DNA of 64,000 bases from Bacillota bacterium. Lineage in GTDB: Bacteria > Bacillota > Clostridia > Lachnospirales > Lachnospiraceae. Under the pieces are notes generated by a model. That model did not search any database, was not told the DNA's origin, and saw nothing but the letters and a program-made list of their open reading frames with translations. The position numbers were made by a program, and so were the translations under genes. The stretch is from positions 1 through 64,000 of the forward strand of contig JAEWJZ010000028.1 in assembly GCA_023386315.1 (NCBI GenBank). The letters run 5' to 3'. This document shows positions 16,515 to 34,063 of this stretch, in pieces (position 1 is the stretch's first letter; every line of letters begins with the position of its first letter).

Positions 16515-16539
16515 TAATAAAACAAATAGAAAGTAGGAA

Positions 16540-16929: not shown

Positions 16930-16951
16930 TAGGCATATATAGGAATAGGCT

Positions 16952-16990
16952 GGTCAGACAGTTGTGGGCAAACTGTCTGACCTATTTTCC
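16952..16990 (+). terminator. Strong terminator after the toxin/immunity pair
   Basis: GGTCAGACAGTT (16952-16963) pairs perfectly with AACTGTCTGACC (16971-16982) around a 7-nt loop, followed by a T-rich run. It closes the operon that starts near 3600. Confidence 0.85.
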
Positions 16991-17012
16991 TTTATAGATA
17001 TTCATTCAATCA

Positions 17013-17155
17013 TCCTGGAGGAAGCCCGATATGATGAGGAGAGGAGGTACCATTATTATCCGTTAGTGGCAGCCAGTGAAGTGGAAGGACAGGACGATAC
17101 CATGCGTATCATCTGGATGAGAGAAATAATACTGCATATATAACAGGCAGCCAGA
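17013..17155 (+). pseudogene. Rhs core fragment, shuffled copy of the full-length gene
   Basis: 17067-17155 repeats 15677-15763 almost base for base, but with a one-base deletion (GACGATAC against GACGAATAC) that breaks the frame. 17013-17045 resembles 15436-15478, so about 200 bases between the two parts have been lost. There is no start codon. A TTTCTTTATAnATATTCATTCAATC-type block (16987-17012) recurs at 17159-17184, so the fragment is framed by a short imperfect direct repeat, which suggests recombination at module borders. Confidence 0.8.
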
Positions 17156-17238
17156 TTTTTCTTTATATATATTCATTCAATCTAAAAATAACAAAATAAT
17201 TGATAGAATGGTTACTGAATTAAAGTAAAGGAGAAAAA

Positions 17239-17598
17239 ATGAATTTATATAATTTGCTAGAAAGTAAAAATTTAGACATAAGTAATATTGTAAAAACATT
17301 TAAGGAAAAAAATTTTAATTATATTTATAATCAATATAAAGAAGCAGTAGATGAACTATTATTTATATCAAATACTAATGAGTTTGATGATTTTATAAAT
17401 GAACAAGGAGAATTAAAAGAAGAACCGTTCTTACTAGAATTTGCCTATAAAAAAGGTGTGTGCTGTAACATAGGTATGTATGATGAAAATGCTAATGACA
17501 TTTTATCTGACTACATAAATAGACATAGCAATATCAATGTTAATTTGCATTATTCATATGATGAAATTAACCATTTGAAAGGAGATATAATTATTTGA
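17239..17598 (+). CDS. Orphan immunity-like protein between Rhs fragments
   Basis: This 119-residue acidic, soluble protein starts with ATG behind an AAAGGAG ribosome site. No family is recognised. It lies between two Rhs core fragments and is very AT-rich, both typical of immunity genes left behind when an Rhs tip is replaced. Its toxin partner is no longer present. The role is inferred from context. Confidence 0.5.
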   Translation: MNLYNLLESKNLDISNIVKTFKEKNFNYIYNQYKEAVDELLFISNTNEFDDFINEQGELKEEPFLLEFAYKKGVCCNIGMYDENANDILSDYINRHSNINVNLHYSYDEINHLKGDIII

Positions 17599-17658
17599 TG
17601 ATAAACAATGGGAAAGCCATGCGATAGCAAGAATTATTTAGTTACTTGATATTAAGAT

Positions 17659-18126
17659 AACCGCTTTGTAGACTGGACAGTCTCTATAACCTATGACCAG
17701 TGGGAACTTTCTTATAATTATGATTTAAAAAACCGAATCACATATGTAAAAGACTGGCTGGGGCCAGTATTTAAATATGAATACGACAAAAATGACCGCC
17801 TGGAAAAAGAAATTTTGCCAAACAGTGAAGATGGACAAGAAAAAGAGTATAAAAATAACTTATCCTATGCCTATGACTCTTATGGGAATATTCTCACGCA
17901 CACAGATGGCGATGGAAATGGAAATCGGACCACTTATGATATGGACAAATGGGGAAGAATCCAAAGGATCAGCAACGGAGACGGCGGAATTGAAAGTTAC
18001 ACCTATGACAGAATGGGAAATGTCACCAGCACCACGGATCCAAACGGAGGTGACATCACCTATCGGTACAGCAGTCAGGGAAAAGTCTGCGAGGGTTTCT
18101 TTTATTATAAATGTTTGCTGTGGTAA
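17659..18126 (+). pseudogene. Second Rhs core fragment with internal deletions
   Basis: The frame reads Rhs sequence (QWELSYNYDLKNRIT, YEYDKNDRLEKEILPNSEDG, SYTYDRMGNVTSTTDPNGG) and parallels 13900-14575 of the full gene at high identity. Compared with it, a block between CCTATGACC and GTGGGAAC is missing, and another is missing where GATGGCGATGG replaces about 190 bases. The Rhs match ends at GTCTGCGAG (about 18092) and unrelated codons follow to the stop. There is no ribosome site. Similarity to the intact gene makes it a possible donor for tip replacement. Confidence 0.8.
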
Positions 18127-18289
18127 TGAAATAAAGCATTAGGAAATCCGACAAGGAAGTCAGATGTAATGAGGCGATATACGTATGGTAAAAGAAACCA
18201 ACTTTTTGAGACAATCCAGTCGGCAAAGAAGGAAGAGAATTGTATTTTTGAACAGGATAGTTAACCGAATGCATAATAAGTGACTCAAC

Positions 18290-18342
18290 AAACACCCCAG
18301 ATAAAACAAGTTTTTAGCAATTGTATTAAGGGTGTTTTTATA
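18290..18342 (+). terminator. Possible terminator after Rhs debris
   Basis: AAACACCC (about 18290-18297) can pair with GGGTGTTT (18330-18337), followed by T-rich sequence. The 32-nt loop is long, so this is tentative. The remaining 18343-18585 is AT-rich and shows no gene; it should hold the recombinase promoter. Confidence 0.45.
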
Positions 18343-18597
18343 AAAATTATTATATTTTTTTATGAATTTTTAAGGCAACATATTCAGAAGTCAAAGTTAA
18401 TAATTTGCCATAAGCTGTAAAAATAGCATAAAATCCCTCTCTTTCTTAAAACATATTTTTTACAAAATCCCATTATCTGCTATCTTAATCACAAAAATCA
18501 TTCGATATTGCATATAAGTGATATAATCTTCAAATACTGAAGCATATAGAACATTTTCAATTCTGAATTATATCAATAGCAGACTATGGAGGGAATT

Positions 18598-19485
18598 ATG
18601 AAAAAGAATCAGAGAGAAGTAAGAACTATAACAGAAGGCGTAATAGAAGAATACTGTAAATGGCTGTACTGCCAGGAAAAGAGCCAGGTGACCATTCAAA
18701 AATACCGGTATTATCTGGAACAATTTTCATGCTTTCTGGAAGGAAGGAGCATAAACAAAGAGTTGGTAATCTTATGGAAAGCCCAGCTGCGAAAAAGGTT
18801 TTCTCCTGTAACTGCCAACGGAGCTCTGGCCGCAGTCAATGGATTTTTTAAATACAGCGGCTGGCCGGATTGCAGGGTGAGATTTTTCAAGGTCAGCAGC
18901 AGTGTGTTCTGTACAGAGCAAAAGGAGCTAAATAAAGGTGAATATAAAAGGCTGGTAAAAGCAGCGCAGGAAAACAAAAATGAACGTTTAGCCATGATCC
19001 TGCAGACGATCTGTTCCAGTGGCATCCGTGTTTCCGAACTTCCCTTTATTACAATTGAAGCAGTGAGGAGCGGTGTAGCAGAGGTTGAATGCAAAGGAAG
19101 GATCCGAACCGTCATTCTGACCCGCCAATTATGCGAAGCATTGACAGAGTATGCAAAGAAGCGGCATATTATATCCGGTATGATATTTATTACCCGTAAT
19201 GGAAAAGCCATTGACAGAAGCAATATCTGGAGGGAAATGAAAGCATTGGGAAGCCTGGCCGGAGTTGCGGAAGAAAAGATATATCCTCATAACCTTCGTC
19301 ATTTGTTTGCCAGAACCTTTTACATGATGGAGAAGGATTTATCGAGGCTTGCAGATATATTGGGACACAGTGATGTGAATACTACCCGTATTTACACAAA
19401 AGAAAGTGGTCATGCACATTTGAAAATACTGGAGCAATTGGATCTATTAGTCGCACAATACAACGGAATACCTCTTTTGTTGTAA
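18598..19485 (+). CDS. Tyrosine recombinase, likely DNA invertase of the adjacent pilus switch
   Basis: A 295-residue XerC/D-like recombinase. An N-terminal SAM-like core-binding domain (about 15-95) precedes the catalytic domain with a full set: Arg144 (SGIRVSEL), Lys166 (ECKGRIR), His231 and Arg234 (HNLRH), His257 (GHSD) and Tyr266 (TRIYTK). ATG 18598 has GGAGGG just upstream; ATG 18586 is an alternative. Its stop codon lies inside the left inverted repeat of the 19458-19712 segment, so inversion keeps the stop and changes only one or two C-terminal residues. That placement, and the absence of phage or transposon genes, argue for a dedicated promoter invertase. The product is intact. Confidence 0.85.
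   Translation: MKKNQREVRTITEGVIEEYCKWLYCQEKSQVTIQKYRYYLEQFSCFLEGRSINKELVILWKAQLRKRFSPVTANGALAAVNGFFKYSGWPDCRVRFFKVSSSVFCTEQKELNKGEYKRLVKAAQENKNERLAMILQTICSSGIRVSELPFITIEAVRSGVAEVECKGRIRTVILTRQLCEALTEYAKKRHIISGMIFITRNGKAIDRSNIWREMKALGSLAGVAEEKIYPHNLRHLFARTFYMMEKDLSRLADILGHSDVNTTRIYTKESGHAHLKILEQLDLLVAQYNGIPLLL
19458..19485 (+). repeat. Left inverted repeat / recombinase core site of the Tad switch
   Basis: 28 bp laid out as an 11-bp arm ATACAACGGAA, a 6-bp spacer TACCTC and an 11-bp arm TTTTGTTGTAA. It is the reverse complement of 19685-19712 with two mismatches. The recombinase stop codon TAA (19483-19485) is inside it. Confidence 0.85.
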
Positions 19486-19507
19486 AAATACGTCGAATCT
19501 ATTATTT

Positions 19508-19536
19508 AATATACTACATAAATACTTAAAAGTCTA
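19508..19536 (-). promoter_or_regulatory. Sigma-A-like promoter inside the Tad switch, facing left
   Basis: On the minus strand: -35 TAGACT (19531-19536, 4 of 6), exact 17-bp spacer, -10 TATATT (19508-19513, 5 of 6). Transcription would enter the 3' end of the recombinase gene antisense in the present orientation. Confidence 0.55.
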
Positions 19537-19588
19537 CAATTTTTTTAAGAAACTATTTAAAATGTGTAAATTTGTTGAATTTGGATAG

Positions 19589-19650
19589 CGCAAACAGGCT
19601 GGAGTTGTGAAAAAATCCCCAGCCTGTTTGCGGTGTCCTTCTTTTTTTTT
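19589..19650 (+). terminator. 14-bp-stem terminator inside the Tad switch
   Basis: CGCAAACAGGCTGG (19589-19602) pairs perfectly with CCAGCCTGTTTGCG (19619-19632); a run of nine or more T residues lies at 19641-19650. It should insulate the pilus operon from recombinase read-through in this orientation. Confidence 0.85.
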
Positions 19651-19684
19651 AAAAAGGCTCACCTCTGGTTAAATTTTCTTTTAT

Positions 19685-19712
19685 TTACAACAAAAGAGGT
19701 ATTCTGTTGTAA
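19685..19712 (-). repeat. Right inverted repeat / recombinase core site of the Tad switch
   Basis: On the plus strand: 11-bp arm TTACAACAAAA, 6-bp spacer GAGGTA, 11-bp arm TTCTGTTGTAA. The arms are inverted copies with one mismatch. The asymmetric spacer is the reverse complement of the left-site spacer, so the two sites are opposed, as needed for inversion rather than deletion. Confidence 0.85.
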
Positions 19713-19777
19713 CCACTCATGAATCAGTCATTGAAACAGCATACAAACCTTATAAGATCAGGAACATGGGGGAGAAG

Positions 19778-20455
19778 ATGAATGGAATTTTAGGTACTGC
19801 CGTTTTAACCGGTGTGAGCAGTCTGGTTGGTTATTTTATACCGGAATTATCATATTCCTTTGCCTGTTATAAATGCAGGAGGAAGGGATATCAGGCGCCG
19901 TTAAGAAGCCACGGTTACCGGTGGAACGGTTTAAGCCTGGTTTTTACTACAGGCATTACAGGATTGTCCTGCTTATTATTACCGTTTGATCAGGCCATAT
20001 TTACGGTGCTTGTCAGCTATATTGCAGCTTTTGGCATTTGTGTGGACAGATTAATAAGAATCATCGCCAATGAAATGCTGTGGGTGATTCTGGCAGCAGG
20101 TCTTACATATCGTATACATTCAGACGGCTTACCAGGGCTCTTGGGTTCAGCCGGGGCATTGCTGCTGGTGATTGTTGTTTTCGGCTTCACAATGATGTTT
20201 ACCTATGCCAGGAAAGGAACTGCCGGAGTTGGAATGGGAGACGTTAAGCTGGCCATGATCATTGCAATAACGGTCGGCTTTCCCGGAGTCTTTTACTTCC
20301 TGACCGGGATGGCCTGTGTCATCGGTTTTTATTGTCTGGCAGGAATGAAATGTGGTTTTCTGGTCCGGGACAGTACTTTCCCGATGTGCGGACACATAAT
20401 GGCGGGCTTCCTGATCGCATTGCTTTGGCCGTACATTTCAATCACTATTTTGTGA
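19778..20455 (+). CDS. Prepilin peptidase (TadV/CpaA type, A24)
   Basis: A membrane aspartic protease that cuts Flp prepilins before the EY of their hydrophobic segment. The 225 residues hold about six membrane segments and the two expected aspartates: one in CVDRLIRI (about residue 90) and the GxGD motif as GVGMGDVKLAM (about 150-155). ATG 19778 is preferred because GGGGGAG lies 4-5 nt upstream; ATG 19766 would include that site in the coding frame. It is the first gene of the Tad operon and the first that would be reached by the inverted promoter. Confidence 0.85.
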   Translation: MNGILGTAVLTGVSSLVGYFIPELSYSFACYKCRRKGYQAPLRSHGYRWNGLSLVFTTGITGLSCLLLPFDQAIFTVLVSYIAAFGICVDRLIRIIANEMLWVILAAGLTYRIHSDGLPGLLGSAGALLLVIVVFGFTMMFTYARKGTAGVGMGDVKLAMIIAITVGFPGVFYFLTGMACVIGFYCLAGMKCGFLVRDSTFPMCGHIMAGFLIALLWPYISITIL

Positions 20456-20467
20456 AATGAGGAGAAT

Positions 20468-20629
20468 ATGAGAAGCTTAAAATCTGAAAATGGACAGGCT
20501 ATGGTTGAATATGCAACTCTGTTTGCAGCAGTTGTAATCGTGGCCGCGATTACCTTCGGAAATATGTCTGAGGCCGCGGTTAAGATTTATAATATGATTC
20601 AGACCAGTCTGCTGCCTATGTTTCCATAA
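20468..20629 (+). CDS. Small Flp-like pilin 1
   Basis: A 53-residue ORF begins at ATG 20468 behind GAGGAG. The product has a short basic start, the processing motif ENGQAMVEYATLF (cleavage expected near Gly-Gln, with Glu-Tyr at the mature +5/+6 region), one hydrophobic helix and a short tail ending LLPMFP. This matches the Flp/Fap pilin size and layout. It differs from the second pilin by a weaker helix and may be a minor or pseudopilin. It lies 12 nt after the peptidase gene. Confidence 0.7.
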   Translation: MRSLKSENGQAMVEYATLFAAVVIVAAITFGNMSEAAVKIYNMIQTSLLPMFP

Positions 20630-20750
20630 TGTTTGGAGTAACCAGCCGGTTTGGTTCATACATATTAAAAATTAAAGATGAAATATGGAATCTGGCATAA
20701 TGCAGTTTTATACCAGTTCTAAATATACAGAAGATGGGGAGGTGAAAAAT

Positions 20751-20915
20751 ATGAAAAAACTTTGGGATAAATTTGTTTCTGAGGAAAGCGGACAGGGAAT
20801 GGTTGAATATGGTTTAATTCTCGCACTGATCGCTGTTGCTGTTATTGTTGGATTACAGGCACTTGGCGGTAAGGTTCAGGGTACATTTGATAAGATTAAT
20901 ACTTCAATGCCGTAA
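20751..20915 (+). CDS. flp: Flp/Fap major pilin
   Basis: A 54-residue prepilin: MKKLWDKFVSEESGQ, then GMVEYGLILALIAVAVIVGL and a short polar tail ending NTSMP. The Gly before the hydrophobic segment and the conserved Glu-Tyr are the Flp signature. ATG 20751 is chosen because GGGGAGGTG sits 8 nt upstream; upstream in-frame codons lack pilin features. It is followed by a GC-rich hairpin that may protect the 3' end of an abundant pilin transcript. Confidence 0.9.
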   Translation: MKKLWDKFVSEESGQGMVEYGLILALIAVAVIVGLQALGGKVQGTFDKINTSMP

Positions 20916-20956
20916 ATAAAAAGTCATAAAAAATCAAACCGGCTGTTGCTTATAGA

Positions 20957-20999
20957 AAGACGAGGCGAATATTCAGTGAACATCTGCGAGCCTCGTCTT
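20957..20999 (+). terminator. Hairpin between pilin and CpaB genes
   Basis: AAGACGAGGC (20957-20966) pairs perfectly with GCCTCGTCTT (20990-20999). No T run follows, so it is more likely a partial terminator or mRNA-stabilising structure allowing more pilin than machine protein to be made. Confidence 0.55.
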
Positions 21000-21036
21000 G
21001 AATTGTAATGAGGTGTTATACCAGGGAGGAATTAAG

Positions 21037-21855
21037 GTGAAAAAAATTCGTTTGATTGCATTGGCAGTTGCATTCCTTGTGTTCATAGCCGGATACCGGA
21101 TGCTTGCATTGCGGGAAAACCATCAGTCCCAAACCAAGGCTGATGGACAGAAAATCGAAGTAGTCGTTGCGGCGCAGGATTTGAGTCCCTACACAACACT
21201 GACGAAGGATATGATAAAGCTTAAAAGGGTACTGGTTGATGAAGAAACGAAAGGCTATTACAGAAAGCCGGAGGAAGTAGTGGGAAAGGTATGTGTATCA
21301 AATGTCTTTCAGGATGAAGTGCTGACAGACCGGAGGCTCGCAGAAGATAATGCAGAAATTCTTGGGCTTTCCTCAAGACTGGAGGAAGGAAAACGGGCGA
21401 TATCCATAAATACGGATTTAGAACAGGGAGTTTCCAATAATCTCAGAGTGGGAAACTATGTGGACGTTATTTTTACAGGCACCCTGAAATCGTCTGTGCA
21501 GGGGAGCGAAGAGGAAATTCCGGCAGGACTGGCCATGGAGAGGATCATGGGCCCCCAGAATCCGGCCAATGCCCAGATTGTAAATGATTCTGTAGGAAAT
21601 GAATTTTCTGTTATTGCCCTGCAGAATATTAAGGTTGCGGCACTTGGAAGTTCGTTTTCCTTTGACAGCACGAAAGACTATAAAGATGAGGAATACGTAA
21701 GTGTCACATTGGAAGTGACTCCTTCCCAGGCAGCCCAGATTGCCCTCATGAAAAGCGGGGAAGGGAAAATACAGCTGGCACTCAGACCTCAGGAGGACAG
21801 CAGTATTGTAAACGAACCCCGTGGATCTGTACTTAAGAATTATGAAGGAAATTAG
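21037..21855 (+). CDS. cpaB: Tad pilus assembly protein CpaB/RcpC
   Basis: This 272-residue protein has an N-terminal membrane anchor (about 5-24), a SAF domain (about 45-110, VVVAAQDLSPYTTLTKDMI) and a C-terminal RcpC domain (LEEGKRAISINTDLEQGVSN, DVIFTG, VTLEVTPSQAAQIALMKSGEGKIQLALRP). GTG 21037 is chosen because AGGGAGGA lies 6-7 nt upstream; an in-frame TTG at 20998 falls in the preceding hairpin. In Gram-negatives CpaB works with the secretin; in Clostridia, with no secretin, it probably acts at the outer face of the membrane or in the wall. Confidence 0.85.
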   Translation: MKKIRLIALAVAFLVFIAGYRMLALRENHQSQTKADGQKIEVVVAAQDLSPYTTLTKDMIKLKRVLVDEETKGYYRKPEEVVGKVCVSNVFQDEVLTDRRLAEDNAEILGLSSRLEEGKRAISINTDLEQGVSNNLRVGNYVDVIFTGTLKSSVQGSEEEIPAGLAMERIMGPQNPANAQIVNDSVGNEFSVIALQNIKVAALGSSFSFDSTKDYKDEEYVSVTLEVTPSQAAQIALMKSGEGKIQLALRPQEDSSIVNEPRGSVLKNYEGN

Positions 21856-21882
21856 TTTTCTTTGGGAAAGGGGAATCAGCTT

Positions 21883-23079
21883 GTGAAAATTAAAATTCTG
21901 CTCCTGGGGATACCGGAGAAATGTTCACAGATCAAAACGCAGATAAAAGACGATGAGATTACCATAGTCGGATATGTCGTGGATGAGAACCAGGTACTAA
22001 ATGAGATAAACAGGACCATGCCGGATCTGATTCTGATTACGGATACTTCACCCATGGCCCTGCGGTCCTGCCAGCAGATTTATCTGCTGCGCCCGCGCTC
22101 TGTTCCGATTGTGCTTTCAGATCTGGAAGACAGCGATCTGATGTATAAGATCCTGCAGTCCGGAGTCCACTACATTCTGCCTGAAAATATAGAGCCCATT
22201 AATCTGATAGCAGAATTAAAGGGAATTTACAGCAATGAATCAAACCGGATTCTGGCACTGGAGAATACGGGAGCCAAATCTTCCAAATCAAAAGTAATTA
22301 TGGTCTTCGGTCCAAAGGCTGGAGTGGGAAAGACAACTCTGGCAGTAAATATGTCAATAAAGCTGGCTCAGAAAAATAATAAGGTGGTTATCCTGGATTA
22401 TGACTTTCAGTCCGGAGATGTTGGTATTCTGCTGGGGATGAATCCGAGAAATACGATTCTGGAACTGATCCAGGAACAGAGTAATCCAAACGTTGATACG
22501 ATCCGGCAGTTTTTGTCTCTCCATCTTTCCGGAGTGAACTTCCTTCCCAATCCCCACAGCCCGGAATATGGTGCCTCCATCACTGCCAGGCAGGTTGAGA
22601 GCATCATCGCTGCTTTGCGGGTTTACTATGACTATGTTATTGTCGACGCAGTCTCGGGGTTTGATGATACATCGGCCTGCTGCATTGACTGTGCCTCAGC
22701 TGTTTTATTTGTAACAGGAAAAGATGTGCCTGCGCTGCACAATGCAAAGAAAAGTCTGCAGGTGCTGGCAGAACTGACGGATAAACAGAAGATCAAACTG
22801 ATTGTCGGAAAGTGCTATGGATACGGAATATCAGACAACGATGTTTCCCGTGTACTTGGCATGCCGGTGTGGGGTTCCATTCCCTATGATGAAAAATCAG
22901 CTGTGGCAGCAGCAAATCAGGGTCAGCCGCTTGTACTGTCGTATCCGAAAAGTAAAATCTGTAAGGAAATTTCCAATATAGCAGAAAGGCTGGAAGGAAT
23001 GAACGAGGGTTACAGAAGTGTGAAAAGCAGGAAAAAGAAACGGATATCATTTCTTCAAAAAGGAAAGGAGACTGGATAA
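21883..23079 (+). CDS. TadZ/CpaE pilus localisation ATPase
   Basis: This 398-residue protein joins an N-terminal receiver-like domain (1-120, without a full phosphorylation motif) to a MinD/ParA ATPase domain. The deviant Walker A is GPKAGVGKTTLAVN (about 143-156), followed by ILDYDFQSGDVGILLG. TadZ proteins place the pilus machine, often at the pole. GTG 21883 has AAAGGGGA 7-8 nt upstream and is preferred over TTG 21862. The Lys/Arg-rich tail is unusual. It ends 3 nt before the CpaF gene. Confidence 0.85.
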   Translation: MKIKILLLGIPEKCSQIKTQIKDDEITIVGYVVDENQVLNEINRTMPDLILITDTSPMALRSCQQIYLLRPRSVPIVLSDLEDSDLMYKILQSGVHYILPENIEPINLIAELKGIYSNESNRILALENTGAKSSKSKVIMVFGPKAGVGKTTLAVNMSIKLAQKNNKVVILDYDFQSGDVGILLGMNPRNTILELIQEQSNPNVDTIRQFLSLHLSGVNFLPNPHSPEYGASITARQVESIIAALRVYYDYVIVDAVSGFDDTSACCIDCASAVLFVTGKDVPALHNAKKSLQVLAELTDKQKIKLIVGKCYGYGISDNDVSRVLGMPVWGSIPYDEKSAVAAANQGQPLVLSYPKSKICKEISNIAERLEGMNEGYRSVKSRKKKRISFLQKGKETG

Positions 23080-23082
23080 GCC

Positions 23083-24441
23083 ATGGAGTGGGTATCTCGT
23101 CTGGGTCAGCCAAAGGAAACAGACCATTCTGTTTCAAAGGCGTTCCATGTTTCAAACGCCGAGCCAGGAAACAGAGCGGATAAAAATTATGACAAATTAA
23201 AGCAGACGGTTCACCAGGAGGTAATACGGGAATACAATGACCGTTTCTCGGACAGCACCAATGGGAAATTCATTGATGTTATGGAAATCATCCATCAGGC
23301 CATTGCCAGACAGGAGGAGAGCCTGACCCGTCTGGAAGAATCAAAGCTTGCTCAGGAAATTTACGACGATGTCATGGGACTGGGCCCCTTAGAGCCACTG
23401 CTGCGGGATGATTCTGTTTCTGAAATCATGGTGAACAGTGCAAGACAGATTTACATAGAGCGGGGAGGCAGACTGGAACAGACAGCCGCCAGCTTCCGGG
23501 ATGATGCCCATGTATTAAAGGTAATCAACCGGATTGTTTCATCCGTAGGCAGGCGCTGTGATGAAGCCACCCCCATGGTGGATGCACGTCTGGCAGACGG
23601 TTCCCGTGTAAATGCCATTATTCCGCCCATTGCTTTAAAAGGTCCCTCCATCACAATCAGAAAATTTTCTTCCACACCGCTTAAGATCGGAGACTTAATT
23701 GGATACGGCTCCTTATCTTCCCAGATGGCAGGATTTCTGGAGGCAGCAGTAAAAGGACGCTGCAATATCATTGTTTCCGGGGGAACCGGTTCAGGTAAAA
23801 CCACGCTGTTAAATGTATTATCAGGGTATATTCCGGACAGTGAAAGAATCGTGACCATAGAGGACGCGGCCGAGCTCCAGCTGAAACAGGATCATGTAGT
23901 GACTCTGGAAGGGCGGCCAAGCAATATTGAAGGAAAAGGGATTGTTTCAATCCGTGATCTGGTGAAGAATGCACTTAGAATGCGTCCCGACCGGATTATT
24001 GTAGGAGAGGTCCGGTCCGGAGAGACTCTGGATATGCTGCAGGCCATGAATACAGGTCATGACGGTTCTCTGACTACGGTACACGCAAATTCTTCCAGAG
24101 ATGTGATATCCCGTCTGGAAACAATGGTTTTGATGTCAGGAATGGAATTGCCTGCAAAAGCCATCAGAGAGCAGATCACCTCTGCCATTGACTTAATCGT
24201 ACATCAGTCCCGTTTACGGGATGGAAGCAGAAAGATTGTCAACATATCTGAGGTGGTGGGAATGGAAGGTGATACTGTTACCATGCAGGATATTTTCAGC
24301 TTCCGCCAGAACGGTACGGATGGGAACGGAAAAATCGCAGGGAAGTTTGAACCAACGGGAATCCATCCGAAGATCCTTGATAAGATCAGGGATAATGGAG
24401 GCTATTGCAGGGATGACTGGTTCCTTGCGGAAAGGAGGTGA
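23083..24441 (+). CDS. cpaF: Tad secretion ATPase CpaF/TadA
   Basis: This 452-residue hexameric VirB11/GspE-type ATPase powers Flp pilus assembly. Visible motifs are Walker A SGGTGSGKTTLLN (about 232-244), the Asp box (TIEDAAELQL), Walker B region (MRPDRIIVGEVRSGETLDML, about 300-318) and the His box (TGHDGSLTTVHAN). The N-terminal third is the usual helical domain. It sits between tadZ and tadB as in other Tad operons. Confidence 0.95.
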   Translation: MEWVSRLGQPKETDHSVSKAFHVSNAEPGNRADKNYDKLKQTVHQEVIREYNDRFSDSTNGKFIDVMEIIHQAIARQEESLTRLEESKLAQEIYDDVMGLGPLEPLLRDDSVSEIMVNSARQIYIERGGRLEQTAASFRDDAHVLKVINRIVSSVGRRCDEATPMVDARLADGSRVNAIIPPIALKGPSITIRKFSSTPLKIGDLIGYGSLSSQMAGFLEAAVKGRCNIIVSGGTGSGKTTLLNVLSGYIPDSERIVTIEDAAELQLKQDHVVTLEGRPSNIEGKGIVSIRDLVKNALRMRPDRIIVGEVRSGETLDMLQAMNTGHDGSLTTVHANSSRDVISRLETMVLMSGMELPAKAIREQITSAIDLIVHQSRLRDGSRKIVNISEVVGMEGDTVTMQDIFSFRQNGTDGNGKIAGKFEPTGIHPKILDKIRDNGGYCRDDWFLAERR

Positions 24442-24445
24442 CAGC

Positions 24446-25381
24446 ATGAAAATGGTTTGTCTGGCTGCTGCGGCATTATTCAGCTATTGTGCCATAGAAA
24501 TGATTCTGGAATTTCTGTTAAAAAAACAGCTGCAGATTAATGAGCGGTTAAGTGATTTAAGCCAGGTGAAAAAAGAAACAGCAGGTTCGGCAGATGGAGA
24601 AGAAAAAAAGGACAGACAGCTTTTGCGTTTCATACATATTTCAAAAAAGCTGAAGGAAGAAGTCAGCTTATCCGGAATCAGGCTGCGTCCGGAGGAGTTT
24701 ATCATGATCTGGTTTCTTCTTATTTTTGCACCGGCCATGCTCTTATTTGCATTTGCCCCGGATTTGATTCAGTGTATGGGGCTTTTCCTCATAGGACTGG
24801 TTGTTCCTCCATTCTTTCTCAAAATGGCGGCTGCGAAACAGCGCTCCCTGTTTGAGGCTCAGTTAGGGGATGCGCTGATGGTGCTTTCCAATGGTCTGAG
24901 AGCCGGTTTTTCTTTTGAGCAGGCGCTGGAGAATGTTTCCGGAGATTTAGCCAATCCCATTGGCGGTGAATTGAATACAATCGTCAGGGAGCTTAAGCTG
25001 GGAGGGGAACTGGAACAGTCTTTTCTGATAGTAGCTGACCGAATGGAAAGCGATGATTTAAAGCTGCTCACTACAGCTGTTGTCATACAGCAGAGGGTGG
25101 GCGGAAATCTGGCAGAAATACTGGATATCATTTCCCAGACCATACGGGACAGACTGACAATCAAGCGTTCCATAAAGACGCTGACTGCTCAGGGAAGGAT
25201 CACCGGCCAGGTGATTGGAGTGCTTCCGGTCCTGCTGCTTCTTGCTCTTTCATTTGCCAATCCAGGGTATATTTCGCCGCTGTTTTCGTCTCTTCCGGGA
25301 CGTCTTTTGCTGCTTCTTGGCGGAAGTATGGAGATTTTTGGCTTTCTAATAATCAATAAAATCGTAAATATAAAGTTTTGA
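24446..25381 (+). CDS. tadB: Tad inner-membrane platform protein TadB
   Basis: This 311-residue membrane protein has a T2SSF domain: an N-terminal membrane helix (about 2-20), paired helices near 90-130, the cytoplasmic LGDALMVLSNGLRAGFSFEQALENV stretch, and C-terminal helices ending near 305. TadB and TadC form the platform on which CpaF assembles pilin. ATG 24446 has a full AAAGGAGGTG site and overlaps nothing, 4 nt after cpaF. A long upstream open frame inside cpaF is not coding. Confidence 0.9.
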   Translation: MKMVCLAAAALFSYCAIEMILEFLLKKQLQINERLSDLSQVKKETAGSADGEEKKDRQLLRFIHISKKLKEEVSLSGIRLRPEEFIMIWFLLIFAPAMLLFAFAPDLIQCMGLFLIGLVVPPFFLKMAAAKQRSLFEAQLGDALMVLSNGLRAGFSFEQALENVSGDLANPIGGELNTIVRELKLGGELEQSFLIVADRMESDDLKLLTTAVVIQQRVGGNLAEILDIISQTIRDRLTIKRSIKTLTAQGRITGQVIGVLPVLLLLALSFANPGYISPLFSSLPGRLLLLLGGSMEIFGFLIINKIVNIKF

Positions 25382-25416
25382 TGAAACCATAGGAGATTCA
25401 GACAGGAGAAGAAAAG

Positions 25417-26334
25417 ATGATATTTCTGACAGCCATAGCCGGCTCAGTGTTTGCTTATTTTTTTGTTGATCTGTGTTTTTCCGCAGCTTTTTCTAAAACG
25501 CTTGCTTTGAATGAACGCTTAAAATCCGTGGAAGATATGGGAAAACGGCAACGGGAAACAGGGGAACTGGATGTTTCGATCATAGACCGGATCATGAGAC
25601 CGGTTTTTAATCGCATCCTTACTATTTTTTCCGTATTTGCGCCTAAAAATCCCGCGGCTCTGGAGAGAATGGAGCAGCAGCTTAAGCAGGCCGGCATTCA
25701 TATGAAATCCCAAAACTACAGCGCGGCGGTTGCCTTTTTTACGGCAGTATGCATTGGGCTCGGCATTTTATACGGCAGGACGGGAGGTTTTTTACAGTCT
25801 GTCCTTTTTGGTGCACTGGGGCTTTATGCCGGAATAGTCTTAAGCCGTTTTCATTTAAAGAGCAAAATAAAACAACGAAAAGCAGAACTATATCACCAGC
25901 TTCCGGAAATGATGGATTTATTAAGTGTCAGTGTCTCAGCTGGATTGGGTTTTGACCAGGCCCTGGGATATGTGGTGGAGAAATCAAAGGGAGCGCTCAT
26001 CGACGAACTGGATGTGACTCAGAGGGAAATTTCCCTGGGCCGCAGGCGCAAGGAGGCTCTGATCGGATTTGCAGAACGGTGTGATAATATGGAGATCCGG
26101 ACATTTGTCACGGCTGTCATTCAGGCCGATGAAATGGGATCCTCCATGCAGAATATCCTGTCCATCCAGGCGACTACCATCCGGCAGACCCATAAACAGA
26201 ATGTAGAAGAAAAGGCGCAGAAATTATCTGTAAAGATTCTGCTGCCCATGGTGCTGTTTATATTTCCTGTCATCTTTATTGTACTTTTGGGACCCGCAGT
26301 CATGTCAATTATGGAAATGTTTGGAGGTATGTAA
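25417..26334 (+). CDS. tadC: Tad inner-membrane platform protein TadC
   Basis: This 305-residue membrane protein has the T2SSF signature LPEMMDLLSVSVSAGLGFDQAL (about 165-185) and membrane helices at the N-terminus, about 105-145 and at the C-terminus. ATG has an ACAGGAGAAG site. It partners TadB. The stop is followed after 2 nt by the DUF192 gene. Confidence 0.9.
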   Translation: MIFLTAIAGSVFAYFFVDLCFSAAFSKTLALNERLKSVEDMGKRQRETGELDVSIIDRIMRPVFNRILTIFSVFAPKNPAALERMEQQLKQAGIHMKSQNYSAAVAFFTAVCIGLGILYGRTGGFLQSVLFGALGLYAGIVLSRFHLKSKIKQRKAELYHQLPEMMDLLSVSVSAGLGFDQALGYVVEKSKGALIDELDVTQREISLGRRRKEALIGFAERCDNMEIRTFVTAVIQADEMGSSMQNILSIQATTIRQTHKQNVEEKAQKLSVKILLPMVLFIFPVIFIVLLGPAVMSIMEMFGGM

Positions 26335-26336
26335 TT

Positions 26337-26711
26337 ATGATAGTTCTTGTAGAAGGGGAAAATGGTTTTGAGGTTCAGGCACAATATGCCGATACCTTCA
26401 TAAAAAGACTGCTGGGGCTGATGTTTCGCAGGGAGCTGCATGAGGGCAGTGCCCTGCTTTTAGATCCCTGTTCCCGCATCCATACATGCTTCATGCGTTT
26501 TCCCATCGATGTGGTATATCTGGACCATGTTAATATGGTTTTAAAAAGGGAAACAGTTTATCCCTGGCGGATGGGAAGCTTTGTGAAAGGAACCAGAAAG
26601 ATATTAGAATTAAATAAAGGCGCTGCAAGAAAGTTAAAGACCGAAAAACAGCTGTTTATCAGTTTTATTGAAGAAAGGAGGGCGCAAGATGAATTACAAT
26701 CAGGTAAATGA
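26337..26711 (+). CDS. DUF192 protein
   Basis: This 124-residue protein matches DUF192: RLLGLMFRRELHEGSALLLDPCSRIHTCFMRFPIDVVYLD, then VYPWRM and ELNKGAARKL. The family forms a small beta barrel; its biochemical role is not settled, but it is often found in or near Tad loci. It has no signal peptide here. The 3' end overlaps the next start by 23 nt. Confidence 0.85.
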   Translation: MIVLVEGENGFEVQAQYADTFIKRLLGLMFRRELHEGSALLLDPCSRIHTCFMRFPIDVVYLDHVNMVLKRETVYPWRMGSFVKGTRKILELNKGAARKLKTEKQLFISFIEERRAQDELQSGK

Positions 26712-28248
26712 TTTCGGACAGGAAGCAGGAAACGGCGGACAGATGGGGGGCATGCTTCCTGACGGCATGGAAGGTCTTACAGGTAAGAATATGCAGACAG
26801 AGCTTGCTGCAAAGCTCCAGACAACGGTAGTGGGAGGATATACCAAAAAGAGTGTGGAAGAATACGCTTTGGAAATGAGGAATAATCTGATGCTGATAAA
26901 AATGCAGCTGGAGCAGCAGATCCGTGAGCTGACTGCTGAAAAAGTCAGTGTGACCCAGGAATGCCAGGTGCTGCGTGAGCAATTAAACACAGCAGAGGAA
27001 AAGCTTTCCGACGCAATCGCGCTAAAGGAAAGGGCAATGCAGGAAGCCAGGCTGTCAGCAGCAAAATTGGAAGAATGGGAGAACCAGCATTCTGATTATG
27101 AAGAAATGCAGCTGCAGAAAGAAATGTATGAGGAAGAGATTTCCCAAAAAGAACAGGATATTATCCGTTTGAATGGACAATTATCAAACTATCAGCACGA
27201 TTATGAGGCTCTTCAGGCGAAAATGAAGGATATGGAGGAAAATCTCCTGAAGGTTTCCCTGGGGCTGCCTCAGCCGGAAATGGAAGAAATGCTGCGCCAG
27301 AAGGAGGAAGCTGAGCAAAAATATGAAAAGCTTCTTATGAAACTGGAAGAAAACGCCATAGCTCTGGAGCAGGAACGCCAGGCCCGGAAGGAAGAGCAGG
27401 AGCAGCAGAATCTGATGACTGAACGGGGAAAATGGGAGCAGCAGGCTCTGATTGTTGAACGGGAAAAGCTGGAACAGCAGATTTTGTCAGCTGAAAAGGA
27501 GAGATCGGAACACCAGGCTTTCATCGCTGAACGGGAAAAACAGGAGCAGCAGGCTTTGGCGGCTGAAAAGGAAAAATGGGAAAAGAAGCTTAATGACTTA
27601 AAGAACCAGTATGAAGAACAGGAGAACTATAAAAGAGAACTGGAAGAAAAGGTTGACGTTTTATATAAGAATTATGAGGAAAACTCAACCCGGATAAAAA
27701 GGCAGGAGCAGCAGATTGAAGAAAAGGACATGCTTTTAAAACATTACCAGGTGCAGGAACAGGGGGCCATACTGACCCGCCAGGAAAATCAAAAATTAAA
27801 AGATACCATAGATTCCTTAAAAGAAACGATTCAGATGATTATGGAGCAGATGGAAACTCAGTCTGAAAGCATGAACCTTTACATGGAGCGTACGACTCAG
27901 GAGCGGGATACCCTTAAAAAAGCAATTGGGGAACAGGCAGCTCTGAAGCTTCAGAATGTGGAACTGTTAGATATCCAGAGAGGCCTGCTGGCCCAGATTG
28001 AGGAGCTGAAATCCAGGAATATGCAGCTGGAGAAAGGAATGGAGCTGCAGAAAAAGGTTTCCTTACCTGTGGAACGGGAGAAAAGGGCTGTGCTGCCGGA
28101 AAAGCAGCCATCTGTCAGCGCAGAAAGGGAGTCTTCTGACCCGGAACTGTTTACCTGTGACAAAGCCATGCAGAAAGCCAGGGGATTGTTCTCTGTGATG
28201 GAAGGAGAATATGCCGAGAATAACAGGGAGGTAAAGAACATTGGCTGA
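26689..28248 (+). CDS. Long coiled-coil protein with DivIVA-like N-terminal motif
   Basis: This 519-residue protein has a Gly/Met-rich start, then VGGYTKKSVEEYALEMRNNL (about 48-68), which resembles the DivIVA/GpsB lipid-binding motif (GYxxxxVDxY). A near-continuous coiled coil follows to about 450, with a Glu/Gln repeat block (EREKQEQQALAAEKEKWE type) at about 230-310. No membrane segment is seen. ATG 26689 follows GAAAGGAGGG. DivIVA proteins mark curved membrane at poles, so this could position the pilus machine with TadZ. This is inference; a structural scaffold role is also possible. Confidence 0.6.
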   Translation: MNYNQVNDFGQEAGNGGQMGGMLPDGMEGLTGKNMQTELAAKLQTTVVGGYTKKSVEEYALEMRNNLMLIKMQLEQQIRELTAEKVSVTQECQVLREQLNTAEEKLSDAIALKERAMQEARLSAAKLEEWENQHSDYEEMQLQKEMYEEEISQKEQDIIRLNGQLSNYQHDYEALQAKMKDMEENLLKVSLGLPQPEMEEMLRQKEEAEQKYEKLLMKLEENAIALEQERQARKEEQEQQNLMTERGKWEQQALIVEREKLEQQILSAEKERSEHQAFIAEREKQEQQALAAEKEKWEKKLNDLKNQYEEQENYKRELEEKVDVLYKNYEENSTRIKRQEQQIEEKDMLLKHYQVQEQGAILTRQENQKLKDTIDSLKETIQMIMEQMETQSESMNLYMERTTQERDTLKKAIGEQAALKLQNVELLDIQRGLLAQIEELKSRNMQLEKGMELQKKVSLPVEREKRAVLPEKQPSVSAERESSDPELFTCDKAMQKARGLFSVMEGEYAENNREVKNIG

Positions 28249-28762
28249 CTTTAAAGGTAAGGATGAAAACGGGCAGTCAATCCTGGAATTTGCCCTGATT
28301 CTGCCTATTATAGTGCTGCTTTTTACTGCTCCTGTGGATTTCTTTATCTGCATGAATACGAAGATGACATTAAGCAGTGCTGCCAGCGAATGTATCAGCC
28401 GTTTGGACTATTCTGATATATCTTCAGGAACCGTAAGCGGCAAGGTGACACAGATCATTACCCAGAATTTCACGGAACGGCTGGATCCTTCCAAGGTTAA
28501 TATTGAAGAACTGAACGCGGGGAGCAGTCAAAAGAACGATTACAGTTATTACGTTTACTCCAGTGACCGGGCCAATCCTGCTGACTTTGGCAGCCAGTTT
28601 GAAGTGCGCCCCGGCAGTTATGAGTATTCCGAGGTACAGCTGCAGCTATCTTATGAACGTTCTGCAGTAACCTTTTGGGGAACGTTCTTTCTGGGGAATA
28701 CATATAAAGTGAAAACACCTGTCTATTCCCGTGATATTTATATAAACGGCTATACTCCGTAG
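28241..28762 (+). CDS. TadE-like minor pilin 1
   Basis: This 173-residue protein starts with the motif ENGQSILEFALILPIIVLLF, the TadE-type prepilin segment with conserved Glu, then an extracellular domain. The likely start is TTG 28241 with GGGAGG 8-10 nt upstream, overlapping the previous gene by 8 nt. TadE proteins are pseudopilins matured by the prepilin peptidase and may initiate or cap the pilus. Confidence 0.8.
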   Translation: MADFKGKDENGQSILEFALILPIIVLLFTAPVDFFICMNTKMTLSSAASECISRLDYSDISSGTVSGKVTQIITQNFTERLDPSKVNIEELNAGSSQKNDYSYYVYSSDRANPADFGSQFEVRPGSYEYSEVQLQLSYERSAVTFWGTFFLGNTYKVKTPVYSRDIYINGYTP

Positions 28763-28784
28763 CAAGACGGGAGGAGGATAAGTT

Positions 28785-29333
28785 ATGAAATGTTTATTTG
28801 CTCTGAAACAGGATAAAGGACAGGGAATGGTAGAATTTGCGCTGGTGTTTCCGATTTTTATTATAATCATTCTTTTTATAATCGAAGTTGGCTGGATGAC
28901 TTACCAACAGACTGTTTTTGATCAGAGTTACCAGTATTCCAGCTGGTCCGTCCAGGCGTCGGATTTCGGGGATTCGGATCCGTTAGATACCTGCCCGTCC
29001 AGTGCTGTCTACAGCGGAAATACGGTATCAGACCCTTTGGTGGAACGAATAAAAGAAGCCAGTTTCTGGGGCTTCCTACCGGAGAATTTAACAGTCAGTG
29101 ATGCACAGGCAGCAATGAAAAATGTAGAAAAATCCTTTTCGGTGCCGGGGCGGACACCGGGCGATACCGTAACGGCAATCAGCCGGACCCGCTATATGGA
29201 TTTAAAAGCAACCCTGTCCTATGATATATACCCCCTTACCTTTCTGGGGCGGCAGGTTTTCGGATCCAGGGTAACAAAGGAAAAAAATTTAAGCTGCAGC
29301 CGGGTCGTATCCACCCAGCATAGATCTGAGTAG
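28785..29333 (+). CDS. TadE-like minor pilin 2
   Basis: This 182-residue protein carries DKGQGMVEFALVFPIFIIII at residues 10-29, the TadE signature, then a soluble extracellular domain with Tyr and Ser. It follows the first TadE-like gene by 22 nt with a GGGAGGAGG ribosome site. Two TadE-like proteins in one operon is common (TadE/TadF). Confidence 0.8.
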   Translation: MKCLFALKQDKGQGMVEFALVFPIFIIIILFIIEVGWMTYQQTVFDQSYQYSSWSVQASDFGDSDPLDTCPSSAVYSGNTVSDPLVERIKEASFWGFLPENLTVSDAQAAMKNVEKSFSVPGRTPGDTVTAISRTRYMDLKATLSYDIYPLTFLGRQVFGSRVTKEKNLSCSRVVSTQHRSE

Positions 29334-29362
29334 CTTTGGGTAACAAAAAAAGGGAGGAAAGC

Positions 29363-29932
29363 ATGAAATGTAAAACCAGGTGGAAAAAGAAGTTTGCCTG
29401 TTTTGGCCGGGAAGATGGAAATATTCTGCTGCTTTTCGCCGGCAGCCTGACTGTTCTGATTTTTTTTATCGGGATATCGATGGATCTGGGGCTCATTTAT
29501 TTAAAGCGTAATGCACTGATGAATCTATGCCAGCTTGTGAAGGAAGACAGATTTACGTTCCAGGATTCAATCCGGTATTCCGATAATCCGGGGAAGGACA
29601 GCTTTAACATGATAGAAGAAGCAATAAGAAGAAATCATTTTGATGGAACGGTGAAGGTGTATTTTAAAGAAGATACGCCGGAAACCAATTACAGATATTA
29701 CAAGATACGGACACAGCTCAGCGAAGAATACTCTTATACATTTTTGAAGATTTTCGGAGCTGATACGACTACCATTACCGTCTATTTTGATGGGGGGGAA
29801 ACATACGGAGAAGGGATTTCGGACGTCATATGGCATCCTGCTTTACCGGTTTCCAGCTACAATGGTTCTTATACCAGCCAGCCTGACGGAAGCTGCCAGT
29901 ATGACAGCGCAGATATCCCGGCTGACTGGTAA
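29363..29932 (+). CDS. TadG-like N-terminal membrane protein, lacking the vWA domain
   Basis: This 189-residue protein has GREDGNILLLFAGSLTVLIF (about 16-35), like the N-terminal helix of TadG-type proteins (TadE/G domain), then about 150 residues of exported domain. TadG proteins usually continue into a vWA domain, but that is absent; a separate secreted vWA protein lies two genes downstream, so the function may be split. ATG 29363 has AGGGAGG; TTG 29336 is a weaker alternative. Confidence 0.65.
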   Translation: MKCKTRWKKKFACFGREDGNILLLFAGSLTVLIFFIGISMDLGLIYLKRNALMNLCQLVKEDRFTFQDSIRYSDNPGKDSFNMIEEAIRRNHFDGTVKVYFKEDTPETNYRYYKIRTQLSEEYSYTFLKIFGADTTTITVYFDGGETYGEGISDVIWHPALPVSSYNGSYTSQPDGSCQYDSADIPADW

Positions 29933-29957
29933 CGGATAAAATATGAGGTAACTTAAA

Positions 29958-31199
29958 ATGCAAAAGAAGGTTTTTTCCGTGGCCGTTTTTCTGCTTGCAG
30001 CGGCCTGTATGCTCACTGCATGCAAAAAGAACGGCTTTATTTTAAAAAAGAATCCAGTCAGGGAGTGTACACTTACATTCTGGCATTGGGACACCGGGCA
30101 TCAGGAATTCTATGAGAAAATCGCATCGGATTATGCTAATGAGCATGACGGAGTAAAAATAGATATCAGGCTGGTTCCCTATGAAACCTATACTGAGGAG
30201 TGGCTGAAAGCGGCTTCAGAGGGGGAGACTGCGGACGTTTTTGCCATACCTCCTGAAAATCTGGATCAATTTGTAAACAGCAGAAAGCTTGAGGCGCTGA
30301 CCTATGCAGATCTTATCCCTGCAGGCAGTGAAGAGGAATTTCTGATAAACAGACCAGGAAAAGAGAAGGCTTATGCTCTTCCTGCAGCCGGCAGTCTTCC
30401 GGTGATTTTTTATAATAAAGATATCTATGAACAAAACCAGCTTGTGGTTCCTGAAACACTTTCGGATTTTGTGACAAACTGTGCCATATTAAAACAGTCT
30501 TCCTGCCAGCCGTTTGCCATGTCGCTGACAGAGGAGGGGAGATTTGATGCGTTTGATTTTGCAGCCGGGATTCTGGCTAACGGAAAGAGCCTTAATGGCA
30601 AAAAGTCAGAGAAGCAGGACTTTAAAAAGCTGCTGGATAAAAATACCGGCTATTATGACATGCTTGGAATCGCTATGGAATTGTCCCTGGATAAGGGACT
30701 CTGTGTGAAAGGGCATCAGGCTTTGTTAGAAAATTTTGCACAGAACAAATACGCCATGATCTGCGGCACCACAGAGGACATTGCTGCGTTAAATGAGTGC
30801 ATGGCATCTTCTTTTGGGTGGTTCATGCTGCCGGGAGAGGATTATACAGAAGCAGGAGTCTGGAAGGCAAATCATATGTTCGGAGCTTCAAAAAAGGGCA
30901 AATCAGTGAAGGAAGCAAAAAAATTCCTTTCCTATTTCCTTACCCAGGAAAATCAGCTGGCATTTTCAGCAGAGTTTGGAATGCTTCCGGCTGTAAGAGG
31001 CTTAAAGCCGGATGATAAGGAAATCAGGCAGGCCTACGAACTGGTAAGCGGGAAAAAGGAAGTTTATTTTCCATTTTTTCAGACCATGTCTCAGGAAGAG
31101 AGAACGTTATGTGCGGAGAAATTAGATCTTATATTTTCAGGCGAAGTAACGGATCCGGAAGGCTTTTTGACAGATTGGATCAAAAAGCTGAAGGATTAG
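29958..31199 (+). CDS. Orphan ABC-type extracellular solute-binding lipoprotein
   Basis: This 413-residue lipoprotein has a signal peptide with lipobox MLTAC (Cys22) and a family 1 solute-binding fold starting TLTFWHWDTGHQEFYEKIA, typical of sugar-binding proteins. No permease or ATPase gene lies near. Its position inside the Tad operon, before the adhesin, suggests use as a surface receptor or accessory to the pilus instead of uptake, but it might serve a distant permease. Confidence 0.8.
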   Translation: MQKKVFSVAVFLLAAACMLTACKKNGFILKKNPVRECTLTFWHWDTGHQEFYEKIASDYANEHDGVKIDIRLVPYETYTEEWLKAASEGETADVFAIPPENLDQFVNSRKLEALTYADLIPAGSEEEFLINRPGKEKAYALPAAGSLPVIFYNKDIYEQNQLVVPETLSDFVTNCAILKQSSCQPFAMSLTEEGRFDAFDFAAGILANGKSLNGKKSEKQDFKKLLDKNTGYYDMLGIAMELSLDKGLCVKGHQALLENFAQNKYAMICGTTEDIAALNECMASSFGWFMLPGEDYTEAGVWKANHMFGASKKGKSVKEAKKFLSYFLTQENQLAFSAEFGMLPAVRGLKPDDKEIRQAYELVSGKKEVYFPFFQTMSQEERTLCAEKLDLIFSGEVTDPEGFLTDWIKKLKD

Positions 31200-31229
31200 C
31201 CGGAAAAGTCGTGTGTGGAGGTAAAAGCA

Positions 31230-33998: not shown

Positions 33999-34063
33999 TA
34001 CACCAAAAAGATATGTTATAATTATTTAAAATCTATTGAAGCATTTATAAAACAGGAAAGGGT

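What the first reader, a model, noticed from the sequence alone, without database searches (positions are those of the whole stretch)
18598..20455. Predicted recombinase-driven inversion switch for an entire Tad pilus operon
An intact tyrosine recombinase is followed by a 255-bp segment bounded by opposed sites, each with two 11-bp arms and a 6-bp spacer. The segment holds a 14-bp-stem terminator and a TAGACT-17-TATATT promoter facing away from the pilus genes. Inversion would put the promoter before the prepilin peptidase gene and take the terminator out of the path. All about 14 kb of pilus and adhesin genes could thus be turned on and off together. Invertible promoters with tyrosine recombinases are known in Clostridioides and Bacteroides; I know of none described for a clostridial Tad locus.
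Basis: partly seen in the sequence, partly recalled or inferred. Interest (0 to 1): 0.95.

Follow-up and report, generated by a model that had tools for sequence, protein, structure and literature searches.

The report
Invertible promoter switch for Tad pilus
In a bacterium close to Lacrimispora, a short DNA segment with a predicted promoter and a predicted stop signal sits between two mirror-image recombination sites, right after a recombinase gene and right before the genes of a whole Tad (adhesion-type) pilus; the recombinase would likely flip the segment and so turn the whole pilus on or off.

Summary
A tyrosine recombinase gene (18586-19485) ends inside the left of two inverted 28-bp sites (27/28 match, 197 nt apart), the only such pair within 1.5 kb in the window. 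Between them lie a conserved hairpin plus T-run and a conserved promoter core facing away from the Tad genes. Comparison makes active inversion very likely: of 131 distinct recombinase loci (window included) 102 gave a scorable site pair, and the 6-bp spacer is identical between the two sites in 101 of 102, with 68 different spacers. Two pairs of homologous loci outside the Tad group carry the segment in opposite orientations with matching flanks. In 25 genus genomes the sites lie only beside the recombinase, except one contig end, and all nine Tad genomes there have a site. The nine Tad-linked copies read in full form one clade (100/100) and are all OFF; no flipped Tad copy was seen. One more Tad genome has a contig ending exactly at the site. 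Flipping in this strain and its effect on the pilus are untested. The cassette belongs to a widespread clostridial recombinase-plus-inverton family, probably overlapping published 'inverton group 139'; I found no paper on a Tad operon under such control.

The parts
18586..19485 (+). tyrosine recombinase (predicted inverter of the segment)
   Evidence: PF00589 E=9.9e-27; best solved relative by sequence, XerA-like 4a8e, E=4.2e-28, with R, HxxR, H and Y aligned (their catalytic role recalled)
19458..19485 (+). left recombination site, 11-6-11, spacer 19469-19474 TACCTC; overlaps recombinase C-terminal codons and stop
19685..19712 (-). right recombination site, inverted, same spacer (19696-19701)
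19508..19536 (-). predicted promoter -35 TAGACT, 17 nt, -10 TATATT; faces the recombinase now (OFF for Tad), would face tadV after inversion
   Evidence: core ATGTAGTA in 28 segments, 27 left-facing and 1 right-facing
19583..19651 (+). predicted intrinsic terminator: hairpin and T-run, T-run on the + side only
   Evidence: fold -34.7 kcal/mol; on 9 Tad-linked rows, 6 distinct, 5 of 19 pairs with changes on both sides and 98.2% of cells paired
19778..20455 (+). prepilin peptidase TadV-like, first operon gene (ORF opens at 19766)
   Evidence: Peptidase_A24 E=1.2e-5, 26.1 bits against a cut-off of 26.5
20468..20629 (+). small Flp-pilin-like protein
   Evidence: judged by eye
20751..20915 (+). likely major Flp pilin (GQGMVEYGLILALIAV)
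   Evidence: judged by eye
20998..21855 (+). CpaB/RcpC (start probably near 21038)
   Evidence: TIGR03177 134.9 bits, cut-off 71
21862..23079 (+). TadZ/CpaE-like ATPase
   Evidence: ParA/MinD-type matches; name given by position and fold family
23083..24441 (+). TadA/CpaF ATPase
   Evidence: T2SSE E=7.4e-70; TIGR03819 353.4 bits, just under its cut-off of 373.15
24221..25381 (+). TadB (true start downstream of the overlap)
   Evidence: T2SSF E=9.2e-18
25417..26334 (+). TadC
   Evidence: T2SSF E=2e-18
26337..28248 (+). DUF192 protein (26337-26711) and a protein judged coiled-coil by eye (26668-28248, no Pfam match)
28241..29932 (+). two TadE-like proteins and one Tad/TadG-like protein
   Evidence: PF07811; PF13400 20.0 bits, under its cut-off of 22.3
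29958..31199 (+). extracellular solute-binding protein
   Evidence: SBP_bac_8 E=5.1e-22
31215..33998 (+). VWA/FctA isopeptide-domain surface protein (likely adhesin)
   Evidence: FctA E=2.4e-51, VWA_2 E=1.6e-17

Best explanation
A 253-bp segment bounded by two inverted 11-6-11 sites, holding a predicted promoter and a predicted one-way terminator, lies between a tyrosine recombinase gene and a Tad pilus operon, and the recombinase likely inverts it to switch the operon on and off. In the orientation seen here (OFF) the promoter faces the recombinase gene and the terminator would cut off read-through from it. After strand exchange within the 6-bp spacer the promoter would face tadV, with a predicted start about 100 nt upstream of the gene, and the hairpin would present its side without a T-run. 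The genes from tadV to the VWA/FctA protein (19778-33998) are on one strand and would be switched together. Shown: anatomy, conservation, spacer identity, opposite orientations in relatives, co-occurrence of site and recombinase. Inferred: inversion in this strain, promoter and terminator activity, control of the pilus, bet-hedging of adhesion.
For: (1) Spacers: of 131 distinct recombinase loci, 12 were cut by a contig end and 17 had no arm-defined pair; of the 102 pairs 101 have identical spacers, 68 different spacers, against a mean of 2.8 and a maximum of 10 in 2000 shuffled pairings; left/right differences lie in the arms (54, 21, 27, 46 pairs at outer positions 1-4) while each spacer position differs in 1 pair, the one misfit L109. 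(2) Homologous loci flipped: L142 v L139, recombinases 86% and right flanks 75-78% identical in the same orientation, segment score 90.0 flipped v 6.5 unflipped (maximum of 1000 shuffles 8.5); L133 v L087, 36.5 v -3.0 (shuffle maximum 13.0). (3) Sites in 14 of 25 genus genomes: the 13 with the recombinase at E<=1e-90 plus G403, none in the other 11; in a second genus in the same 7 of 17. (4) Nine Tad-linked elements keep both sites and the -10 core, and the hairpin by compensatory change; their recombinases form one clade, 100/100. (5) TadZ in 9 of 25 genus genomes, each with a site near it. (6) G403 contig C65 ends at the last base of the 28-bp repeat upstream of tadV, as expected if both orientations were among its reads. 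(7) Post hoc: of 14 loci whose contig ends within 300 nt of the recombinase, 8 end in or within 5 nt of a full or truncated site (binomial P 0.002 with p set by me at 0.19).
Against: All nine Tad-linked copies are in one orientation, and so are 27 of the 28 segments with the core, so switching is not seen in assemblies at Tad loci. The window's own promoter has a poor -35 and scores 6.6, under the threshold of 9 used; there 52 of 107 segments gave no confident call, and about 4% of shuffled segments do give one, so some of the 6 right-facing calls may be chance. The unconstrained score even put Tad-linked L006 right-facing by 1.0 and L001 left by only 0.3. G403 is a fragmented draft with breaks elsewhere too, so its break is suggestive only. 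L133 v L087 may be paralogues, since G365 also has L134, whose segment is closer to that of L087. In L029 the truncated second site at the contig end is in direct, not inverted, orientation. The T-run is one-sided in the 8 Tad-linked copies printed, but L127 has a short T-run on the other side too. No reads, transcripts or phenotype were available. A promoter-like TTGAAA-16-TAAGAT at 19731-19758 lies outside the segment, though not kept in all relatives.
Confidence: 0.84

Rival explanations
1. The segment inverts, but works as an orientation-dependent terminator on read-through from the recombinase promoter, not as an invertible promoter (like the C. difficile cwpV switch).
For: Strong hairpin conserved by compensatory changes in the Tad group, T-run on one side in the 8 copies printed; recombinase and operon are co-directional; the window's promoter score is weak. 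The C. difficile flagellar and cwpV switches act after initiation (PMC5386303, passages).
Against: A promoter core at a similar place near one edge is kept in 28 segments and is invariant in the -10 region of nine Tad-linked copies; mean best promoter score 9.27 over 107 segments against 5.63 in shuffled ones. L127 has a short T-run on the other side as well.
Confidence: 0.2
2. The Tad-linked copies are a frozen remnant: sites and recombinase were once active, but the segment is now locked OFF (or the operon is driven from elsewhere).
For: 0 of 9 Tad-linked copies flipped; promoter-like sequence outside the segment at 19731-19758; in L005 the recombinase reads in frame only to residue 279 (G421).
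Against: The recombinase is open to its end in the window and the other relatives, spacers of both sites stay identical, and sites, -10 core and hairpin are conserved over recombinases 71-97% identical. The fixed base difference between left and right outer arms is what crossover in the spacer predicts. In L005 tadA and tadB are split too, which fits sequencing indels.
Confidence: 0.1
3. The sites serve integration, excision or resolution of a mobile element rather than a switch.
For: The recombinase is Xer/integrase-like and the sites are dif-like 11-6-11 (likeness to dif recalled); one truncated direct-orientation site at the end of L029.
Against: In 101 of 102 scorable loci the pair is inverted with one spacer; in 42 genomes of two genera no site was found apart from recombinase loci and the G403 contig end; relatives differ by inversion of just this segment.
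Confidence: 0.03

Closest known systems
Inverton group 139 with invertase group 35 (PMC11892184; sections 6 and 8 and passages read)
   Same: 33 invertons, 32 in Clostridia, nearly all with a nearby tyrosine-type recombinase; the Clostridium sp. D5 example has 26-nt repeats 205 nt apart and orientation shifts seen in reads
   Different: The motif is in a supplement I could not open, so identity with this family is inferred; the words pilus, pili, Tad, Flp, Lacrimispora, Hungatella and Enterocloster do not occur in its main text
fimS switch of E. coli type 1 fimbriae (recalled; abstracts seen)
   Same: Invertible promoter with tyrosine recombinases, controls a whole pilus operon
   Different: Chaperone-usher pilus and recombinases FimB/FimE (recalled); here one recombinase whose own 3' end lies in the site, and a Tad pilus
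C. difficile flagellar and cwpV switches, RecV (PMC5386303, passages)
   Same: Clostridial, tyrosine recombinase, flagellar switch of 154 bp with 21-bp inverted repeats, surface structures
   Different: The flagellar switch holds no promoter by reporter test; RecV serves several loci (recalled). Here the recombinase lies next to the only sites found and the segment holds predicted promoter and terminator
Bacteroidales invertible promoters / Mpi (recalled)
   Same: Invertible promoters of surface genes
   Different: Global multi-site inverter, other motif; here recombinase and sites form a local pair

Membership tests
Tyrosine recombinase | Phage_integrase domain with catalytic R, HxxR, H/W, Y | tested here: met
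   PF00589 E=9.9e-27; aligned to 4a8e at these residues (residue roles recalled)
Tyrosine recombinase | XerC/XerD equivalog | tested here: not met
   TIGR02224/02225 105.4 and 107.4 bits against cut-offs 335.15 and 329.6
Inverton with adjacent inverter | Inverted site pair with identical crossover region | tested here: met
   Window and 101 of 102 scorable pairs
Inverton with adjacent inverter | Both orientations exist | tested here: inconclusive
   Seen between relatives L142/L139 and L133/L087; at Tad loci 0 of 9 flipped, one contig broken at the site
Inverton with adjacent inverter | Recombinase catalyses the inversion | not testable with these tools
   Co-occurrence only
Invertible promoter | Active promoter in the segment | not testable with these tools
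   Conservation only
Tad/Flp pilus operon | TadV, Flp, CpaB, TadZ, TadA, TadB, TadC, TadE set | tested here: met
   TadV just under its Pfam cut-off, TadZ by family and position, Flp pilins by eye
Inverton group 139 (PMC11892184) | Same repeat motif and invertase group | not tested
   Supplement not available; geometry alone agrees

The most novel reading that the evidence does not exclude
This is a portable, self-contained switch cassette of Clostridia: one recombinase, its own two sites (one inside its own 3' end in the close clade) and a promoter-terminator segment. It has been placed before unrelated gene sets, many of the cell surface, and in Lacrimispora it commands a whole Tad pilus. 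In the OFF state the promoter drives antisense RNA into the recombinase gene and damps it, so OFF is self-stabilising and ON cells relax back, which explains the 27:1 bias.
Probability: 0.3. Interest if true: 0.78.

Novelty: new variant of a known kind. Interest (0 to 1): 0.64.

Why it matters
Tad pili drive tight adhesion and biofilm in many bacteria. A DNA-inversion switch over an entire Tad operon would make pilus display all-or-none per cell, and would mean that a culture grown from one cell may show no pilus for genetic reasons. The spacer-identity test used here needs no reads and could flag active invertons in other genomes.

Tried and rejected
No whole genome is held for the window. 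Genome contigs was unreachable twice and answered. L007 looked like extra copies of the switch; it is a scaffold with Ns and repeated copies, all OFF. Consensus promoter and terminator scans were uninformative. Unconstrained promoter scoring gave contradictory calls, for example L011 and L006 right-facing against the core motif, so the position was constrained. A first spacer count kept only 74 of 131 loci and gave 72 identical, the two misfits being L021 and L063; one search uses one register and looser arms, where L021 pairs and L063 falls among the 17 without a pair. No Rfam family at the gathering score in 18000-22000. Among 60 phage records with a match the best is 40% identical. Literature: ten searches; (Tad pilus with phase variation and inversion terms) found 0 papers, and in the listings of the others I saw no title or abstract linking a Tad/Flp pilus to DNA inversion. 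Four papers were opened (PMC5903667, PMC11892184, PMC10939037, PMC5386303); in PMC10939037 none of six terms (clostridi, Lachnospiraceae, pili, tad, adhesin, bolteae) occurs. Most subscription papers are absent, and Jiang et al. 2019 was seen only as cited in PMC11892184.

Full report
What is there. The recombinase ORF 18586-19485 ends inside the left arm of a 28-bp inverted repeat, 19459-19486 / 19684-19711, 27 of 28 complementary. No other pair of at least 26/28 within 1.5 kb exists in the window. Each site reads as two 11-bp arms around the 6-bp spacer TACCTC. The recombinase keeps its stop codon after inversion. Downstream, TadV, two small Flp-type pilins, CpaB, TadZ, TadA, TadB, TadC, a DUF192 protein, a coiled-coil-looking protein, two TadE-like and one TadG-like protein, a solute-binding protein and a VWA/FctA protein run on one strand to 33998. 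The simple scan found 15 terminator-like sites over 19440-34100 on both strands, 13.4 expected; none stood out to me, but the scan allows loops of 3-8 nt only and so misses hairpins such as the one at 19583, whose loop is longer.

Relatives. The sample is therefore a capped one. After removing copies with identical recombinase sequence 131 loci remain, the window included; 107 have an inverted pair by a strict repeat search and 24 do not, 11 of these 24 ending within 300 nt of the recombinase. Eight relatives are, like the window, followed by the Tad operon (L001-L007 and L127/L145), recombinases 71-97% identical to the window's. The nine form one clade with 100/100 support. Elsewhere the same cassette precedes other genes: choline-binding, Cna_B and SpaA-type surface proteins and polysaccharide synthesis in the seven proteins (one had no match, one was a BTAD regulator). 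Of 77 first downstream ORFs listed mechanically I scanned 39 from non-Tad loci: zinc-ribbon proteins 5, signal peptidase 3, Band 7 3, GGDEF 2, capsule, sugar transferase and chemotaxis receptor 1 each, but also single DNA-repair and helicase-associated matches. So the targets are mixed, not all of the surface.

Evidence for strand exchange. I located sites by their arms alone, leaving the spacer free. Of 131 loci, 12 ended within 250 nt of the recombinase, 17 gave no pair, and 102 gave a pair. In 101 the two spacers are identical in inverted register, with 68 distinct spacers; pairing spacers at random gives 2.8 on average and at most 10. Four of the six spacer positions are the most variable of all 26 site positions between loci, yet within a locus they differ only in the single misfit L109, while outer arms drift. 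Identical crossover sequence is what tyrosine recombinases need (established knowledge).

Evidence for inversion. Between L142 and L139, sister sequences in the tree, recombinase and downstream flank align in the same sense (86% and 75-78%), the segment only when reversed (score 90.0 v 6.5, shuffle maximum 8.5). L133 v L087 repeats this (36.5 v -3.0, shuffle maximum 13.0), as does L133 v L134 (34.0 v -4.0), though L133 may be a paralogue of the other two. Three further pairs (L044/L051, L015/L103, L044/L038) are flipped but their right flanks are not alike, so they are weaker. By a position-constrained promoter score 49 segments face left, 6 right and 52 are undecided; by the conserved core ATGTAGTA 27 face left and 1 right. 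Contig ends: of 14 loci ending within 300 nt of the recombinase, 8 end in or next to a site; this was noticed after the fact, and in one of them (L029) the truncated second site is in direct orientation, which inversion does not explain.

Tad loci. In 25 genomes of the genus, TadZ occurs in 9 and the recombinase at 71% or more in 8 of these. The ninth, G403, is a draft whose contig C65 carries tadV to part of tadZ and ends at the last base of the repeat, with the recombinase stretch missing from what is held. Sites were found in 14 of 25 genomes, always beside the recombinase or at that contig end. The nine Tad-linked segments whose DNA I read in full, the window's included, are all OFF. The hairpin is kept by covariation: 19 pairs, 98.2% of cells paired, 5 pairs with changes on both sides, sliding controls 32-47% paired (9 rows, 6 distinct). 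The uniform orientation is against free 50:50 switching in the sequenced cultures and fits a strong OFF bias, a rare ON state, or a lock.

Mechanism. I favour an invertible promoter combined with a one-way terminator. A purely terminator-based switch cannot be excluded, because the window's promoter is weak by score. The OFF bias could come from antisense transcription into the recombinase; that is speculation.

Known kinds. Read-based work on a defined gut community reported inverton group 139, 32 of 33 in Clostridia, tied to a tyrosine recombinase group, with orientation shifts in culture (PMC11892184, sections 6 and 8 read in full and passages). It is probably this family; the motif was not seen. 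An earlier genome-wide survey found clostridial inversions mainly near signalling and chemotaxis genes (PMC5903667, section 13 in full and passages). The word Tad occurs in neither main text.

L133/L087 is now called homologous, not orthologous; the L029 and L127 exceptions and the mixed Pfam tally are added; confidence moved from 0.85 to 0.84 for these.

Noticed in passing
20960-20998: A 9-bp inverted repeat AGACGAGGC/GCCTCGTCT just after the likely major pilin and before cpaB, without a T-run; possibly tunes pilin versus machinery expression.
   Followed up: no
29958-31199: An ABC-type extracellular solute-binding protein sits inside the Tad operon, and a match to it is kept in the distant Tad locus L145.
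   Followed up: partly
31215-33998: VWA plus FctA isopeptide domains with no LPXTG-like end visible by eye; may be a Tad-associated adhesin.
   Followed up: no
19508-19536: TGTAG occurs twice, 20 bp apart, at the -35 and upstream of the -10 on the promoter strand; could be a regulator site.
   Followed up: no
9273-18142: Large Rhs protein with a GH-E nuclease-like C-terminus, an ankyrin-repeat gene after it and an orphan Rhs-like fragment at about 17777-18142.
   Followed up: no
L098 last 60 bases; L029 last 30 bases: Two tandem copies of a site at the end of L098, and a truncated direct-orientation second site at the end of L029; assembly artefacts at an inverton, or real direct repeats.
   Followed up: partly
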